Below, one piece after another: positions 3,717-46,068 of a DNA stretch of 64,000 nucleotides (its first letter is position 1; each line of letters opens with the position of its first letter). Made by a program: the position numbers and the translations under genes. Source of the stretch: Solibacillus merdavium (GTDB taxonomy: Bacteria > Bacillota > Bacilli > Bacillales_A > Planococcaceae); the NCBI RefSeq assembly GCF_014836935.1, contig NZ_JACSPW010000006.1, forward strand, positions 62,001 to 126,000, given 5' to 3'. Below the pieces are notes generated by a model, which had not been told where the DNA came from, did not search any database, and saw only the letters and a list, made by a program, of their open reading frames with translations.

Positions 3717-3771
3717 TCTGATATATCGGCTCTTGATATATAATATATCGGACGCTGATATAGTGTGTCAA
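3717..3771 (-). promoter_or_regulatory. padR operon promoter with ATATATCGG operator repeats
   Basis: On the minus strand a TTGACA (-35, 3766-3771) and TATATT (-10, 3742-3747) are separated by 18 bases, a good sigma-A promoter. The core is overlapped by repeated GATATA(T) blocks, namely CGATATAT, GATATATTATATATC and CTATATCAG. Such ATAT-rich inverted repeats are typical PadR operators, so autorepression is likely. Confidence 0.7.
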
Positions 3772-3986: not shown

Positions 3987-4718
3987 AAAATAAGCGGAGA
4001 TTTTACCGCTATTTGATGACTTGGGCTCTTTTATGCGGAAAATAAGGGAAGGTTTTTCCGTTATTTCAGTTTTAAGCGTTCATTATTGCGTATTTTGAAT
4101 GAATAAGGGAAATTTCTTCCGTTATTTGGGCACATTTTTCAGTTTTTTTCTGAATAAGCGGAATTTCTCCCCTTATTTTTTAGATTGGGTGCTTAATGTG
4201 ATTTCCCAATCGTTAAGAATGAACTGTTTTAAAAAATAAGCGGAGATTTTACCGCTATTTGCTGACTTGGACCGTTTTATGCGGAAAATAAGGGAAGGTT
4301 TTTCCGTTATTTTAGTTTTAAGCGTTCATTTTTGCGTTTTTTGAATGAATAAGGGAAATTTCTTCCGTTATTTGGGCACATTTTTAAGTTTTTTACTGAA
4401 TAAGCGGAATTTCTCCCCTTATTTTTTAGATTGGGTGCTTAATGTGATTTCCCAACCTTTAAGAATGAACTGTTTAAAAAATATGCGGAGTTTCTACCGC
4501 TATTTGCTGACTTGAACCGTTTTATGCGGTAAATAAGGGAAGGTTTTTCCGTTATTTTAGTTTTAAGCGTTCATTTTTGCGATTTTTGAATGAATAAGGG
4601 AAATTTCTTCCGTTATTTGGACACATTTTTAAGTTTTTTACTGAATAAGCGGAATTTCTCCCTTTATTTTTTAGATTGGGTGCTTAATGTGATTTCCCAA
4701 TCGGTATGAACGGACTCT
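3987..4718. repeat. Tandem array of about 245 bp units built of short palindromes
   Basis: Three units begin at about 3987, 4233 and 4478 (periods 246 and 245). Each holds four imperfect palindromes of about 25-27 bp with the pattern AATAA(G/C)GG...CC(G/C)TTATT, so about a dozen in 0.7 kb. The shared end of each unit (around 4182, 4427 and 4671) is a copy of the last 35-45 bases of the neighbouring endonuclease-like gene including its stop codon, so the repeat unit was created by copying through the gene's 3' end. No gene is visible from 3700 to 4670; the 75-codon frame at 3677-3904 lacks any support. Confidence 0.9.
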
Positions 4719-11157: not shown

Positions 11158-12075
11158 ATGAAAAACAAAAGAATGATTGGGTTTTTATTAGTTGTAAGTG
11201 GCTGTTTTTTCTGGGGTATTGGCGGAACGATGTCACAACTACTGTTTTCTCAAGGAATTGAAGTGAGCTGGCTTGTATCAACACGACTAGTTATTGCAGG
11301 TATATTACTTTTAATTACCCAGGCAATATTTAAAGATCGCCGTCAAATACTTGATATTTGGCGTCAAAAATACACAGCATTCCGATTAATTATATTTGCA
11401 ATTGTTGGTATGCTCGCTGTGCAATACACTTATATGGCATCGATTAAAGAAGGAAATGCAGCGGTCGCCACATTACTGCAGTATTTGGCACCTGTCATGA
11501 TTATTGTATGGGTTACACTTCGCGGTCATTCAGTATTCACAAGAAAAGATGCGGTAACCATTGTGCTGGCCCTGAGCGGGAGCTTCCTTTTACTAACAAA
11601 CGGCTCGCTATCAGCATTTGCCGTACCTCTTCCAGCTATTATCTGGGGATTGCTGTCAGGTTTGTCGCTTGCTTTTTATACACTTTATGCTATCCCTCTG
11701 CTGCAGCGGTTTGATTCACTTGTTGTGGTTGGTTGGGGTATGCTGCTTGCCGGAGTTACGATGAGTTTTGTGCAGCCACCTTGGGATGTTGATATTTCGA
11801 ATTGGACTGGATCGACAGTCTTTTATTTAATTATCGTCATTATTTTCGGCACAATGCTCGCATTCTGGTTTTATATCGAAAGCCTGCAAACCCTTACTGC
11901 TAAAGAAACAAGCTTGCTTGGCAATATTGAACCATTGACTGCCGTGTTGGCAACTGTATTATGGCTAAAGGAACCGTTTGGCAGCTTCCAATGGTTTGGT
12001 ACTTCGCTCATTTTGGCTATGATGATTTATATTGCGTTAAGAGCGGATCAGACACGGGATACCATCTCGGAATGA
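11158..12075 (+). CDS. DMT-superfamily EamA transporter
   Basis: A 305-residue inner-membrane protein with about ten hydrophobic segments arranged as two EamA repeats of five. The signature SCFFWGIGGTMSQL sits in the first helix. Members export amino acids, metabolites or drugs; the substrate cannot be inferred. The ATG follows GTGAGGG. It is transcribed alone, and the 21-bp repeat array starts 19 bases after its stop codon. Confidence 0.88.
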   Translation: MKNKRMIGFLLVVSGCFFWGIGGTMSQLLFSQGIEVSWLVSTRLVIAGILLLITQAIFKDRRQILDIWRQKYTAFRLIIFAIVGMLAVQYTYMASIKEGNAAVATLLQYLAPVMIIVWVTLRGHSVFTRKDAVTIVLALSGSFLLLTNGSLSAFAVPLPAIIWGLLSGLSLAFYTLYAIPLLQRFDSLVVVGWGMLLAGVTMSFVQPPWDVDISNWTGSTVFYLIIVIIFGTMLAFWFYIESLQTLTAKETSLLGNIEPLTAVLATVLWLKEPFGSFQWFGTSLILAMMIYIALRADQTRDTISE

Positions 12076-12093
12076 AGTCGCTAGAGAAATTTT

Positions 12094-12460
12094 ATTAGAA
12101 CAATATGATCCGATATTAGAAACTTTGGACTGGATATTAGAAGATTTACGGGTGATATTTGAAGATTTCAGCAGTTTATTAGCAAATGCGACCTATATAT
12201 TAGAAAACCGCGAATTTATTAGAACTTTTAAACATATATTAGAAGGTTGAACTAAGTTATTAGCATTTTTTCTTTACCGAGATTATTTTAGAACTTTTAT
12301 CATTATATTAGAAACTTTAACCACGATATCAGAAAATTTCCGGGTGATATTTGATCATTTCGATACCTTATTAGCACATGAAAACGATATATTAGAAAAT
12401 CTTAACTTTTCATTATTCATTAGAAGATTCAACCCAGATATTAGAAAGATAAAAACCAAC
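12094..12460. repeat. Array of 17 ATTAGAA-led units phased at 21 bp
   Basis: Units begin at 12094, 12115, 12136, 12157, 12178, 12199, 12218, 12238, 12259, 12287, 12307, 12328, 12349, 12370, 12391, 12419 and 12440. Eleven of sixteen spacings are exactly 21 bp; the rest are 19, 20 (twice) and 28 (twice). The unit is ATATTAGAA plus about 12 variable bases. A second-order repeat of 192 bp is visible, since units 2-6 match units 11-15. It fills almost the whole gap between the DMT gene and the terminator of the next gene. The frame through it is largely open but has no start codon or ribosome site. Confidence 0.9.
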
Positions 12461-12488
12461 TAGACAAAATAAAGCTAGTTGGTTTTTT
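12451..12488 (-). terminator. Intrinsic terminator, both directions possible
   Basis: AAACCAACTAG and CTAGTTGGTTT form an 11-base stem flanked by A and T runs. It ends the minus-strand hydrolase gene and may also stop transcription coming through the repeat array. Confidence 0.82.
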
Positions 12489-12491
12489 CTT

Positions 12492-13511
12492 TTATAAATT
12501 TTCAATTGCCTTAAAGACGTCAAAAGCCCCTTCACTTTTGTTCGAACAAACTACTGTCATTTCATTGCTTTCCGGATAATAGGCAGAATGGAAGCTTACC
12601 CCCGGATCATAGCCCATTACGTGGTATTTTGTAATGATTGAGTCGTGTATGTCAATCCAAACGCCATAGCCGTAAAATCTGTCATAATCTTCATCTGTGT
12701 GGATATATGGTTTAAGCAACTGCTTTGTAACCTGCTCGCTCAATAACTCAAAGTCAAAAAGCGATTTCCAAAAATGGGCCATATCTTTAACTGTTATAAA
12801 TGCCCCACCGTCTGCCCCGCCTTTAGCAGGCACGGAATAGATATTTGATCTCGATGATCCATCTTCATTGTCAATATAACCTAGTGCAGTATTTTCCGGT
12901 AAGGCATCCATTGCAAAATATCCTGATTGTCCCATACCGGCCTTGTTAAAAATTGATTCTACTATATACTCCTCAAAACGCATACTGCTAATTTTCTCAA
13001 CGACCAGCCCAAGCAGTATATAGCCGGCGTTATTATAATGGAATCGCTCGCCGACACCTAGCTTCATTGGTTCGTGCTGAAATAACGGTAAAAAATCATG
13101 CCCGTTACGCATTAAATACATCGGGTAATTCACCCATAATTGTTCAAAATCATCCATCACTTCTTCGTCAAAATAATCCGGTATACCTGCTGTATGTGTG
13201 AGTAAATGATGAATCGTAATGTCTGGGTCAAAATGAGGAAATGCAGTATCCAGTACATCCGATAACTTCGATTCAAAAGACAGCTGACCTTTTTCAACAA
13301 GCTGACAAATAGCAACGGCTGTAAAGATTTTGCAGCCAGAAGCAATCCCAAAGCGCGTATACTCCTTATTCAATACTGCGTATGATCGATTGGCATAGCC
13401 ATTACTGAACTGCTGTATTACTTCATCATTTCTTTTTACTAAAACTGTACCCGAAAAATCAATTTCTTCTATAACTGCTTGCACTTTTTCATTAACCTTA
13501 TTCATTTTCAT
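12492..13511 (-). CDS. Beta-lactamase-fold serine hydrolase (class C-like)
   Basis: About 339 residues. It has the SxxK motif as SGCK (near residue 58) and the YxN motif as YNN (near residue 160) in a penicillin-binding-protein/class C beta-lactamase fold, with a Gly-rich GGADGGAF segment near 235. There is no signal peptide, so it is more likely a cytoplasmic esterase or peptidase-like member than a secreted beta-lactamase. An upstream start at 13526 exists; I prefer the ATG at 13511, six bases after AGGGG. Single gene with its own terminator. Confidence 0.85.
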   Translation of the reverse strand: MKMNKVNEKVQAVIEEIDFSGTVLVKRNDEVIQQFSNGYANRSYAVLNKEYTRFGIASGCKIFTAVAICQLVEKGQLSFESKLSDVLDTAFPHFDPDITIHHLLTHTAGIPDYFDEEVMDDFEQLWVNYPMYLMRNGHDFLPLFQHEPMKLGVGERFHYNNAGYILLGLVVEKISSMRFEEYIVESIFNKAGMGQSGYFAMDALPENTALGYIDNEDGSSRSNIYSVPAKGGADGGAFITVKDMAHFWKSLFDFELLSEQVTKQLLKPYIHTDEDYDRFYGYGVWIDIHDSIITKYHVMGYDPGVSFHSAYYPESNEMTVVCSNKSEGAFDVFKAIENL

Positions 13512-14035
13512 CTTATTCCCCTTCATATTGAATGATGTAAGATAAAAACTGGTTTACATAGATTTTCTGAATGATATTTTCAGAATAACAAAACTTGGCA
13601 AATTAATTTTAACATATTAAACTGAAAATTTAGAAACTATATTTTTATAAATTTTAAATTTGGGAACTTATATGTTTCATCGCCGAAATTTTTATTATAA
13701 AAAACGGCAAGTAAAACGAAAAATTAAATCAATGCTAATTGCAGCACAAAAAAGTCGTAATCATCATAAATATTTACATTAATAATTGACTAACTGCTTC
13801 ACCTTTACTTCAAGGCCAAAACGACGTCATATTACTTTATTATCTTTCAATTTTCAGTTCTCATTCGTTTTTATGTTTTCTATCGATCATTCAATTTCGT
13901 TTTTATTTCTTCTAACAATTTATTTTGCTCAACTTGCTTCTCTACAATTTTATCTGTTGATTTTTGTATTGTTGTTGTTATTGACCATAAAAATATCCAT
14001 AAAGCCACAATAATTGCAAACGTTTCTATAATGAA
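13512..14035. other. Gap of about 0.5 kb, at most one tiny gene
   Basis: Very AT-rich. The only hint of coding is a 36-codon frame at 13672-13782 (listed separately). The 75-codon frame at 13786-14013 is a low-complexity hydrophobic read-through with no ribosome site. Promoter sequences of the minus-strand hydrolase must lie near 13530-13600. Confidence 0.45.
13672..13782 (+). CDS. Possible very basic 36-residue peptide
   Basis: ATG to TAA giving a peptide with 16 Lys, Arg or His residues before a short end (starts MFHRRNFYYKKRQ). A GGGAAC sits about six bases before the ATG, a weak ribosome site. The composition is unusual for random AT-rich DNA, but there is no family I recognise and no conserved neighbour. 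Confidence 0.22.
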   Translation: MFHRRNFYYKKRQVKRKIKSMLIAAQKSRNHHKYLH

Positions 14036-43830: not shown

Positions 43831-46068
43831 TTAAAGTGCTTCTACTTTTGCTAGAACTTTCGCTAACACTTTGGCCATTTGACCTTTTGTTACGTTTTCT
43901 TGTGGCTTTAATAAGCCATTATCGCCACTTACTGCACCAATTTCAATCAGAATTGATACATGTGGTTTCGCATAATCAGATACTTTTGAAGCATCCTTGA
44001 AATCACCTGTTAAATCATTAGACGCTTCAATACCTTTTGCTTCTAAAAGGTTACTTAATACCGCAAACATTTGTTGACGTGTGATTTTTCCGCCCGGATT
44101 GAATGCACCACTTTCACCATTCATCAAACCTAAATCAGCTAATGCACCTGCACTTCCCGCATACCAAGTACTTGAATTAACATCAGCAAAGCTTGTAGCT
44201 GTTTCATTTAAACCTAGTGCGCGGACTAATGTTCCTGCAAACTGAGCACGTGTCATGTTTGCAGTTGGATTAAATTTGCCGTTATCTCCTGTGAAGATAC
44301 CGCGTTGTGCTAACATTTCAATGTCTGAACGGAATTGATTGTTGCTAATATCAGTTAAATCTATGTTCGCATCAACGAATACTAATTCACCAGCTTTATG
44401 CAATTGCACAACGATCTTACCGTCTTTAATTGTATAGGCTACAGCTTCTAAACCATTTGCAGTACGGATTTTTAATATCTTATTAGCATTTTCAGTAAGA
44501 ACCGGAATTGTAATTGTAGCTGCTCTCGTATTATTTAATTCTGTACTGGTAATGACTAAATTCCCTGTTTCTTTATTAATTGTTATCGTTACTGAACCTT
44601 CAACTAATCCAACCGGTAAATCTAACTTGACTAATTTTAAAATGTCTTGTTCCACACTTGGCGTTTCAGTAGGTACTTCTAAAGGCGGTGTTGTTTCAGT
44701 GTTATCAGCCGGTGGTGTTACTGTATCTGTTGGTGCTGGAACAGATGGTGTTGGTTGTGTCGGCACTGTTGGTGTCGGATTAACTGGCGCTGGTTGCGTT
44801 GGCTCTACTTCCACGTCACCATTACCCGGTGTTGGATCAACTGGTGTCGGGGCTGGCATAACAGTTAATGTTGCCGCATTCGATGTTGCATTTCCAACTG
44901 CGTTTGTTACTACGACCGCATAAATGCCTGCATCACCCGCTTGCACATTGTTAATTGTCAAGCTCGCCCTTGTTGCCCCTACAATATCTGCTCCATCTTT
45001 TTTCCACTGATAGCTTAAAGATGTATCACTTGTTGCTGTAACAGTAAATGTTGCACTGCCTCCTGCTATTATCATTTGATTACTTGGCTGTGTTGTAATT
45101 TCCAGTGCGACTGGGACTGGCGTAACTGTTAATGTTGCCGTATTCGACGTTACATTTCCTACTGCGTTTGTTACGACTACCGTATAACTGCCTGCATCAC
45201 TTATTTGCACATTGTTAATTGTCAAGCTTGCGCTTGCTCCCCCTGCGATATCCACTCCACCTTTTTTCCATTGATAGTTTAATGGTGCATCGCCAGTTGC
45301 TGTAACAGTAAATATTGCACCGCCTCCCACAGTTATTGTTTTATCACTTGGTTGCGTTGTAATTGTTGGTGCGACTGTCGCGGGCTTGATAGATAATGTT
45401 GCCGCATTCGATGTTACGTTTCCTATTTCGTTTGTCACTACTACCGTATAGTCACCAGCGTCACTTGTCTGTAAATTATTAATTGTTAAACTAGCACTTG
45501 TTGCTCCTACAATATTTATTCCACCTTTTTGCCATTGATAGCTTAATGTTGCATCGCCAGTTGCTGTAACCGTAAAGGTTGCACTGCCTCCTGCTGTTAT
45601 CGTTTGATTACTTGGCTGCGTTATAATTGTTGGTGCTGTTCCTACGGTATAGACTTGTCCCACTGTATAACCTGTTGCAATCGCAAGTCCATCTCCATTA
45701 ACTATCCCTGTTCCAGAAGGTTTTAAATCCAATCGAAGTGTTCCCACACCTGTTATGTCGTTAACCATTACTTGAAAGATTGTTCCGCCTCCAACCACTG
45801 ATGCGATACGACCAGATGCATTCCCTGTTGTTGTTAATATGAAGTCATCGGAATCAACTCCCGTTACACTTTCACTGAATGTTACTAGATAAGTAATACT
45901 TGTTGCATTTGTTTTTTCATCAAGAGGTAAATTTCGATTAATATTGATTACCTTTGGTGGAGTACCACTAGCTGCTTGTACCCAATTCTTATTTGGAATC
46001 ATGGTACCAAACGTTAAGAATAAAACTACTAGTAGCAAAGTTATTTTCTTTAATGCCTTATCGTTCAT
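43831..46068 (-). CDS. Surface protein with three Ig-like repeats and SLH domains
   Basis: 745 residues: signal peptide (1-33), an adhesin-like N-terminal beta domain (about 35-140, ending VGTAPTI), three near-identical immunoglobulin I-set-like repeats of about 90 residues (each with ITTQPSNQTI, SYQWKKGG and SLTINN), a Pro/Thr linker (about 410-465), a short beta region and three SLH domains at the end. The repeats are visible in the DNA as well. It should sit on the cell wall and may bind other cells or the matrix. The frame opens at 46128; AAAGGAGG before 46068 decides the start. Confidence 0.82.
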   Translation of the reverse strand: MNDKALKKITLLLVVLFLTFGTMIPNKNWVQAASGTPPKVININRNLPLDEKTNATSITYLVTFSESVTGVDSDDFILTTTGNASGRIASVVGGGTIFQVMVNDITGVGTLRLDLKPSGTGIVNGDGLAIATGYTVGQVYTVGTAPTIITQPSNQTITAGGSATFTVTATGDATLSYQWQKGGINIVGATSASLTINNLQTSDAGDYTVVVTNEIGNVTSNAATLSIKPATVAPTITTQPSDKTITVGGGAIFTVTATGDAPLNYQWKKGGVDIAGGASASLTINNVQISDAGSYTVVVTNAVGNVTSNTATLTVTPVPVALEITTQPSNQMIIAGGSATFTVTATSDTSLSYQWKKDGADIVGATRASLTINNVQAGDAGIYAVVVTNAVGNATSNAATLTVMPAPTPVDPTPGNGDVEVEPTQPAPVNPTPTVPTQPTPSVPAPTDTVTPPADNTETTPPLEVPTETPSVEQDILKLVKLDLPVGLVEGSVTITINKETGNLVITSTELNNTRAATITIPVLTENANKILKIRTANGLEAVAYTIKDGKIVVQLHKAGELVFVDANIDLTDISNNQFRSDIEMLAQRGIFTGDNGKFNPTANMTRAQFAGTLVRALGLNETATSFADVNSSTWYAGSAGALADLGLMNGESGAFNPGGKITRQQMFAVLSNLLEAKGIEASNDLTGDFKDASKVSDYAKPHVSILIEIGAVSGDNGLLKPQENVTKGQMAKVLAKVLAKVEAL

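What the first reader, a model, noticed from the sequence alone, without database searches (positions are those of the whole stretch)
12094..12460. A 21-bp-phased ATTAGAA array of 17 units between two genes
Seventeen units start with ATTAGAA or a one- or two-base variant, and eleven of sixteen spacings are exactly 21 bp, two helical turns, so all boxes face one side of the DNA. A 192-bp second-order repeat shows the array grew by block duplication. The flanking genes are ordinary. This is not CRISPR: there are no long conserved repeats or unrelated spacers. It could be a multi-site platform for a DNA-binding protein, a nucleoid anchoring or segregation site, or decayed coding DNA.
Basis: seen in the sequence. 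Interest (0 to 1): 0.72.

Follow-up and report, generated by a model that had tools for sequence, protein, structure and literature searches.

The report
Nine-box DNA arrays between operons
The odd repeat is one copy of a DNA element, present in dozens of copies in half of the Solibacillus species examined, made of nine short near-identical boxes at fixed spacing that are kept while the letters between them drift; it looks like an assembly site for an unknown DNA-binding protein.

Summary
In detail: 17 units, 11 of 16 spacings of 21 bp, a 192-bp block repeat. The array is two tandem copies of a dispersed element. In three genomes, 110 of 118 parsed modules of six or more boxes have exactly nine boxes (WTATTAG[A/C]A-nAW), nearly all at spacing (20|21)-21-21-21-21-19-20-(20|21). 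In two relatives it is often preceded by a four-box module (21-21-21), and distances between modules cluster at 71/72, 81/82 and 91/92 bp, one helical turn apart. The element is in 8 of 16 Solibacillus genomes (18-55 places each); 105 other genomes gave only three single, chance-level hits. Orthologous arrays keep boxes and spacing while spacers drift, so selection acts on the boxes. Arrays are enriched between convergent genes, depleted between divergent ones, and often follow a terminator. They are not coding, show no RNA pairing covariation, and are neither CRISPR nor replication-polar. Best explanation: a fixed-size platform on which an unidentified oligomeric DNA-binding protein assembles or wraps DNA between operons. 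RemA, the closest working analogue, was not found in any of the 16 genomes. The binding protein and the role remain unknown.

The parts
12092..12270 (+). first copy of the nine-box element: boxes at 12093, 12114, 12135, 12156, 12177, 12198, 12217, 12237, 12258; spacing 21-21-21-21-21-19-20-21
   Evidence: fits the consensus of 110 aligned copies
12285..12447 (+). second, tandem copy, damaged: boxes at 12286, 12306, 12327, (12348 weak), 12369, 12390, 12418, 12439; box 7 not recognisable and the last two boxes about 11 bp early; the second copy in G005 still has nine boxes
12451..12488 (.). terminator-like hairpin after the array (11-nt loop, T-rich on both strands) between the two convergent genes
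   Evidence: inverted repeat and sequence; the scan does not list it (its loop limit is 8)
11158..12075 (+). EamA-family transporter gene, upstream neighbour; stop codon 17 bp before box 1
   Evidence: PF00892, 7.5e-38
12492..13526 (-). Beta-lactamase-family (PF00144) gene, convergent downstream neighbour
   Evidence: 5.5e-42

Best explanation
The array belongs to a clade-specific family of chromosomal DNA elements. Each is a fixed-size platform of nine directly repeated boxes, in some relatives preceded by one or more four-box modules at helically quantised distances. SHOWN by the sequence comparisons: fixed count and spacing, box conservation against spacer drift, retention at orthologous loci, intergenic position away from divergent gaps, no coding signal, no RNA pairing signal. 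INFERRED: an oligomeric, sequence-specific protein reads the boxes head-to-tail on double-stranded DNA, one subunit or dimer per two helical turns, and holds about 165 bp (nine boxes), with four-box segments added, in a wrapped or filamentous complex. INFERRED, weaker: because the sites lie between operons, preferentially where two gene ends meet, the complex works on local DNA topology or insulates neighbouring transcription units (road-block, supercoil barrier, nucleoid anchoring) rather than switching one promoter.
For: Nine boxes: with 115 copies picked only by boxes 6-8, boxes 1-5 and 9 were within one mismatch at the predicted place in 643 of 690 cases (shifted controls 0-3 of 690), while a box '0' was found in 0 of 115 and a box '10' in 4 of 115. 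Modules of at least three boxes in G000, G001 and G008: 110 of nine, 42 of four, 22 of other sizes. The 58 gaps between such modules: 71 (7), 72 (4), 81 (24), 82 (12), 83, 91, 92, and 28, 38, 50, 50, 63, 69, 69, 70; none at 73-80 or 84-90. AT-dinucleotides in 51 linkers are periodic near 11 bp, z 10.8 against mononucleotide shuffles. Orthologous pairs: G001-G008 n=35, boxes 0.94, spacers 0.68, flanks 89%; G000 with G001 (n=9) and G008 (n=11): spacers 0.54 and 0.56, flanks 81-83%; unrelated copies spacers 0.385. One site in six species, retrieved with a 1.3-kb query that includes both flanks: boxes 0.933, spacers 0.723, end of the adjoining gene 0.896. Context: convergent gaps enriched (odds ratio 4.1, p 5e-5), divergent depleted (0.24, p 6e-4) against other gaps of at least 100 bp, and in each genome alone. 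Terminator found between upstream gene and array in 53 of 86.
Against: No binding protein was found: RemA gave no match in 16 genomes and LytTR matches are about equally numerous in bearing and non-bearing species. A wedge model (parameters recalled) predicts no intrinsic curvature above shuffles (0.918 against 0.915; a dephased control 0.935). The 19- and 20-bp spacings put boxes 7-9 off the face of boxes 1-6 in free B-DNA. A looser parse that also takes upstream stretches of only two boxes has gaps of 89, 93 and 123 and one of 80 (G008). First and last spacings agree in only 39 of 58 orthologous pairs, and small deletions inside boxes occur (G012 and G008). The own genome nearly lacks the four-box module (2 of 21 copies have upstream boxes). 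In the window no terminator was found between the EamA gene and the array, so this copy may be transcribed. G001 and G008 share most loci and are not independent; copies were found by their boxes, which inflates box identity. Insulation has no direct evidence.
Confidence: 0.55

Rival explanations
1. Selfish dispersed element: a MITE- or REP-like repeat spread by an unidentified transposase or recombinase that reads the boxes; boxes persist because only box-bearing copies move.
For: Many dispersed, clade-restricted copies; local tandem amplification (three nine-box modules in L132, six modules at the EamA locus of G006); some sites have the array in some species and not in others.
Against: No terminal inverted repeats or shared ends beyond the boxes were seen in the aligned copies. 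Spacers of most copies are strongly diverged while boxes stay intact at orthologous sites over about 10-20% flank divergence, which neutral decay after insertion does not give. The window array has no match among phage and plasmid records.
Confidence: 0.17
2. RNA-level element: the boxes (UAUUAGAA) act in 3' UTRs or small RNAs as sites for an RNA-binding protein or as a sponge.
For: In tandem contexts the array is more often co-directional with the genes (++ 47, -- 19); the window copy lies between a stop codon and a terminator-like hairpin.
Against: A crude scan finds a terminator before the array in 53 of 86 and a sense terminator after it in 6 of 110. No pairing covariation in 110 sequences. 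No Rfam match at gathering score over arrays in the four loci searched; in the window one sub-threshold match overlaps the end. Module distances in steps of about 10 bp and periodic linkers are a double-helix signature. The orientation bias reaches p 0.013 in G001 only (G008 0.17, G000 0.15).
Confidence: 0.1
3. Operators of a known kind of direct-repeat regulator (LytTR type, or a BldC-like head-to-tail multimer): ordinary, if long, transcription-factor sites.
For: LytTR regulators read 9-bp direct repeats usually separated by 12 bp, that is 21 bp apart (PMC6193735, passages); BldC forms head-to-tail multimers on direct repeats of varying number (PMC5859096, passages).
Against: The LytTR sites described there lie just upstream of promoters; these arrays are depleted in divergent gaps and enriched in convergent ones. 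The repeats listed there (such as ACCACTTAT) differ from TATTAGAA. LytTR matches per genome do not separate bearing (4,4,4,4,4,5,6,6) from non-bearing (4,4,5,5,5,5,6,6) species (counts include a few weak or broken matches).
Confidence: 0.12
4. Chromosome segregation, replication-termination or FtsK-type orienting site.
For: Multi-box arrays resemble plasmid centromeres (recalled).
Against: Orientation is unrelated to replication: 28 of 52 (G001) and 23 of 43 (G008) co-directional with the terminus taken half-way. Arrays occur all round the chromosome, though unevenly: G001 has 35 on the right arm and 17 on the left, and both relatives have a sparse sector.
Confidence: 0.05
5. Decayed or living coding DNA (21 bp = seven codons).
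For: One frame reads as Leu-Glu heptads; some copies carry ORFs of 70-127 aa across the array.
Against: Over units 2-6, frames are no more often open than with column-shuffled spacers (best two frames 63 against 69 +/- 4 and 74 against 77 +/- 4 of 110), and the conserved 19- and 20-bp spacings break any frame.
Confidence: 0.01

Closest known systems
RemA (Bacillus) operator regions: octameric ring or 16-mer suggested to wrap AT-rich repetitive DNA (PMC8481266; abstract and passages)
   Same: AT-rich direct repeats in helical register, suggested to be wrapped by a ring-shaped protein; about 165 bp is 16 turns of 10.3 bp, the subunit number of the 16-mer (a numerical coincidence only)
   Different: there: modestly conserved 7-bp protections every 10 bp, upstream of promoters; here: strict 8-bp boxes every 21 bp, fixed number, dispersed copies, away from divergent gaps; RemA not found in 16 of 16 Solibacillus genomes
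REP/BIME elements (PMC2817692; search listing and start of abstract)
   Same: dispersed, modular repeats that serve as protein-binding sites; location at gene ends and gyrase binding are recalled
   Different: REPs are palindromes in alternating orientation; these boxes are non-palindromic direct repeats of fixed number with drifting spacers
LytTR-type direct-repeat operators (PMC6193735; passages)
   Same: about 9-bp direct repeats 21 bp apart
   Different: two repeats just upstream of a -35 box; different sequence; promoter context
BldC direct-repeat sites (PMC5859096; passages)
   Different: 9-bp sites of a developmental regulator in Streptomyces; not a dispersed element of fixed count
Plasmid centromeres and iteron arrays (recalled; search listing only)
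   Same: several direct repeats about two helical turns apart
   Different: one site per replicon (recalled); here 18-55 chromosomal places
Neisserial intergenic mosaic elements with dRS3 repeats (recalled; search listing only)
   Same: short conserved repeats with variable sequence between them, dispersed and intergenic
   Different: dRS3 units are inverted repeats with long spacers of variable length and no fixed nine-fold architecture (recalled)

Membership tests
CRISPR array | long identical repeats with unrelated spacers | tested here: not met
   conserved part is 8-12 bp; spacers are about 9-13 nt and drift between orthologues
CRISPR array | cas genes nearby | tested here: not met
   the two adjoining genes in the window are EamA and beta-lactamase family; genes further off were not searched
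RemA operator | cognate RemA (PF04025) encoded in the genome | tested here: not met
   0 of 16 Solibacillus genomes; the control found it in B. subtilis, S. elongatus and T. maritima
RemA operator | AT-rich direct repeats in helical register | tested here: met
LytTR operator | direct repeats about 21 bp apart | tested here: met
   box spacing against PMC6193735 passages
LytTR operator | position just upstream of a promoter | tested here: not met
   divergent gaps depleted, convergent enriched; promoters themselves were not mapped
LytTR operator | cognate LytTR gene tracking the arrays | tested here: inconclusive
   match counts similar in bearing and non-bearing species; individual genes were not compared
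REP/BIME | palindromic unit | tested here: not met
   TATTAGAA is not palindromic; the only inverted repeat listed in 11900-12700 is the terminator-like hairpin
REP/BIME | dispersed between genes, away from promoters | tested here: met
Structured non-coding RNA | covarying base pairs | tested here: not met
   best antiparallel five-column sum 7.4 against 7.8 for the parallel control, 110 sequences
Replication-polar site (KOPS-like) | orientation follows the replichore | tested here: not met
   28 of 52 and 23 of 43 co-directional
MITE | terminal inverted repeats and target-site duplication | tested here: inconclusive
   no inverted ends seen by eye in aligned copies; at the G000/G005 site without array the intergenic sequence is too different to define an insertion point
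Plasmid centromere | cognate partition gene beside the array | not tested
   neighbours were named by Pfam only for the window; in relatives two stretches were listed as ORFs without a family search

The most novel reading that the evidence does not exclude
The arrays define a new class of bacterial chromosome-architecture element with a modular grammar, [four-box]n - (71/81/91 bp) - [nine-box], on which a dedicated protein builds nucleosome-like particles of fixed size between operons, at about 20 to 55 chromosomal places in one clade of Solibacillus.
Probability: 0.3. Interest if true: 0.93.

Novelty: new variant of a known kind. Interest (0 to 1): 0.8.

Why it matters
Strictly counted arrays of a non-palindromic box, kept in near-exact spacing over speciation while the DNA between the boxes drifts, say that something reads these sites as one geometric object. 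If a protein wraps them, each chromosome offers dozens of sequence-defined assembly sites, with sister species that lack them as controls: a clean system for asking how bacteria set boundaries between transcription units and fold their chromosomes.

Tried and rejected
Coding origin: open-frame test and frame-breaking spacing. Structured RNA: covariation; Rfam on the window stretch at E up to 1 (only SpF36 sRNA at 12447-12503, 30.8 bits against a gathering score of 48) and on four loci at gathering score (only a TPP riboswitch outside the arrays). CRISPR: geometry. Replication polarity. RemA as binder. LytTR gene-number difference. Mobile carriers: phage and plasmid records, no match for the window array. 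Exact signature in the named genome collection: 18 stretches, 13 from S. faecavium, 4 from one Bacteroidetes bin and 1 from a sheep-gut Bacilli bin; in viral contigs one stretch; the last six are not arrays: integrase-like coding or junction sequence, coding DNA, and a TTATTAGTA microsatellite (judged by eye; records near the window may be left out of those scans). Literature: searches showed no description of such arrays (listings only; open-licence papers). A region dense in arrays was listed as ORFs in two stretches, L166 and L198, in the hope of a candidate binder; nothing stood out by eye and no family search was run on it. Patterns for the window's other repeat were badly chosen and matched nothing. 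The first footprint count included a spurious box and was replaced. The Rayleigh test on gaps does not separate periods from 9.5 to 11 bp; the argument rests on the empty classes 73-80 and 84-90 in the parse with modules of at least three boxes.

Biases and dropped rows: copies were found by their boxes. Of 121 parsed arrays the 110 with a 19-20 spacing pair were aligned; this set is not the same as the 110 nine-box modules. In one search, ORFs overlapping an array by more than 40 bases were set aside as chance frames, so 'intergenic' is partly by construction. One search used 52 of 55 listed places of G001 and 43 of 52 of G008 (those left out: most have 3 mismatches, three are overlapping or neighbouring entries with 2 or 3). 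Of 72 flank-matched pairs, 58 had both flanks of at least 300 bases. Lists marked 'more matches are not listed' were used only for whole counts or the listed part.

Full report
Observation. The array at 12093-12447 is as described: 17 units, 11 of 16 spacings of 21 bp, and a 192-bp block repeat. It lies between an EamA transporter gene on + and a beta-lactamase-family gene on -, 17 bp after the stop codon of the first, and ends near a terminator-like hairpin. In the window the motif pair is well above shuffles (11 against 3.05).

It is a genome-wide family. A search of the own genome with the array gave 20 places, itself included. A pattern made of boxes 6, 7 and 8 with their 19- and 20-bp spacings gave 26 places at up to 3 mismatches against 3 for the reversed pattern. 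Lining copies up showed that the odd spacings are the rule: nine boxes at (20|21),21,21,21,21,19,20,(20|21). The window holds two tandem copies, the second damaged; G005 has two copies at the same locus, both with nine boxes.

Taxonomic range. At up to 2 mismatches the pattern is in 8 of 16 genomes of the genus (own genome 21 places; the others 53, 51, 18, 55, 49, 44 and 28) and in 0 of the other 8. Of 105 genomes outside the genus, three have one hit each; the reversed control has six single hits among all 121 genomes, five of them outside the genus. In a collection of 84,980 named species, exact matches that are arrays came only from Solibacillus faecavium (13 of 18 stretches; the other five are not arrays), which names the genus; records near the window may be left out there. 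The 8 bearing genomes are those nearest to the own genome by the EamA gene (78-88% identity against 73-75%), so this looks like a clade character.

Architecture. Forty stretches each of two single-contig relatives were taken. 121 arrays were parsed and the 110 with a 19-20 spacing pair aligned, the core without gaps. Consensus per unit: W TATTAG[A/C]A n A W, then about nine free bases. Boxes have individual habits: the fifth base of box 4 is T in 52 and A in 49 of 110; box 5 has C at its seventh base in 21 of 110. Picking 115 copies by boxes 6-8 alone predicted boxes 1-5 and 9 within one mismatch in 643 of 690 cases (shifted controls 0-3 of 690); beyond the ends a box was found in 0 and 4 of 115. 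A module of four boxes (21-21-21) often precedes the nine-box module: 54 of 110 copies have upstream boxes, 30 in G001, 22 in G008, 2 in G000. Counting modules of at least three boxes: 110 nines, 42 fours, 22 others; of the 118 modules of six or more boxes, 110 have nine. The 58 gaps are 71/72 (11), 81/82/83 (37), 91/92 (2) and 28, 38, 50, 50, 63, 69, 69, 70; none at 73-80 or 84-90. A looser parse that also takes two-box stretches adds 89, 93 and 123 and 80. G006 has 4-(71)-4-(72)-4-(81)-9-(39)-4-(81)-9 at the EamA locus. AT dinucleotides in 51 linkers peak near 11 bp. These look like double-helix rules.

Selection. Arrays occur at orthologous places. G001-G008 (n=35): boxes 0.94, spacers 0.68, flanks 89%. 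G000-G001 (n=9) and G000-G008 (n=11): boxes 0.93 and 0.92, spacers 0.54 and 0.56, flanks 81 and 83%. Unrelated copies: boxes 0.90, spacers 0.385. Box identity is inflated by the way copies were found, so the cleanest case is the L145 site, retrieved in six species with a 1.3-kb query that includes both flanks: boxes 0.933, spacers 0.723, end of the adjoining gene 0.896; 59 of 72 box columns and 39 of 100 spacer columns invariant. There G000 and G005 have no array, and G012 and G008 carry small deletions in a box. First and last spacings agree in 39 of 58 pairs. At the EamA locus 8 of 8 bearing genomes have arrays (G012 partly deleted) and 0 of 8 non-bearing ones (two of these show one isolated box pair). 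At the L134 site the arrays differ between species, so gain and loss occur.

Context. Orientation of flanking ORFs for 110 copies: ++ 47, +- 38, -- 19, -+ 5, one at a contig end (ORFs overlapping arrays were set aside as chance frames). Against 150 other gaps of at least 100 bp in the G001 and G008 stretches and the window, convergent gaps are enriched (odds ratio 4.1, p 5e-5) and divergent depleted (0.24, p 6e-4); the same holds in each relative alone (convergent p 0.0009 and 0.013, divergent p 0.012 and 0.022). A crude scan finds a terminator between the upstream gene and the array in 53 of 86 and a sense terminator after it in 6 of 110. The window copy is an exception: no terminator was found before it. 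Around the chromosome (dnaA at 331 in G001 and at 3,708,241 in G008) arrays are unevenly scattered, with one array between about 0.53 and 0.73 of the way round from oriC in each relative, and are not aligned with replication (28 of 52, 23 of 43).

What it is not. Coding: open frames do not exceed column-shuffled controls. RNA structure: no covariation. Known RNA family: none at gathering score over the arrays searched. Curved DNA: not by the wedge model. Phage or plasmid borne: no match for the window array.

What it most likely is. A fixed-size nucleoprotein platform. The inference rests on counted boxes, strict spacing, quantised module distances, and selection on boxes but much less on spacers. 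Ring or multimer proteins that use direct repeats give working analogies: RemA, suggested to wrap DNA around an octamer or 16-mer (PMC8481266, abstract and passages); LytTR regulators with 9-bp repeats usually 12 bp apart (PMC6193735, passages); BldC head-to-tail multimers (PMC5859096, passages). RemA itself is unlikely to be the binder: no match in 16 genomes. LytTR match counts do not track the arrays. The role between operons - insulation, topology or anchoring - is a guess from position. The binder is unknown.

Against this reading: no binder, no predicted curvature, the 19/20-bp dephasing of boxes 7-9, the few off-class gaps in the looser parse, near-absence of the four-box module in the own genome, possible transcription of the window copy, and non-independence of orthologous copies. 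The chief rival is a selfish dispersed repeat, weakened by box conservation at old orthologous sites. Novelty: the wider kind (dispersed intergenic repeats that bind proteins) is known; the counted, direct-repeat, helically quantised grammar was not found described in the searches made.

Noticed in passing
window 3987-4710: Three tandem copies (94% matches) of a 246-bp unit with palindrome-like AATAAG...TTATT segments, a different repeat from the nine-box arrays (sequence).
   Followed up: partly
window 44849-45629: Three tandem copies (80% matches) of a 264-bp unit, perhaps repeated domains of a large protein; not examined.
   Followed up: no
window 3721-3762: Short tandem repeat of ATATATCGGCGCTTGATATATA.
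   Followed up: no
16 Solibacillus genomes: RemA (PF04025), found in the B. subtilis control, gave no match in any of the 16 genomes of the genus.
   Followed up: no
G001:C1:2.69-2.73 Mb and G008:C1:2.76-2.85 Mb (L165, L166, L197-L199): Local cluster of arrays: six listed places within 40 kb in G001 and seven within 79 kb in G008.
   Followed up: partly
G001 and G008, about 0.53-0.73 of the chromosome from oriC clockwise: Sector with only one array in each relative.
   Followed up: no
L198 4037-4126: TPP riboswitch (Rfam RF00059, 77 bits) in an array-rich stretch of G008.
   Followed up: no
G000:C53:771-1101 (L038, L050): A longer, irregular array with a roughly 102-bp higher-order repeat in the own genome.
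   Followed up: no
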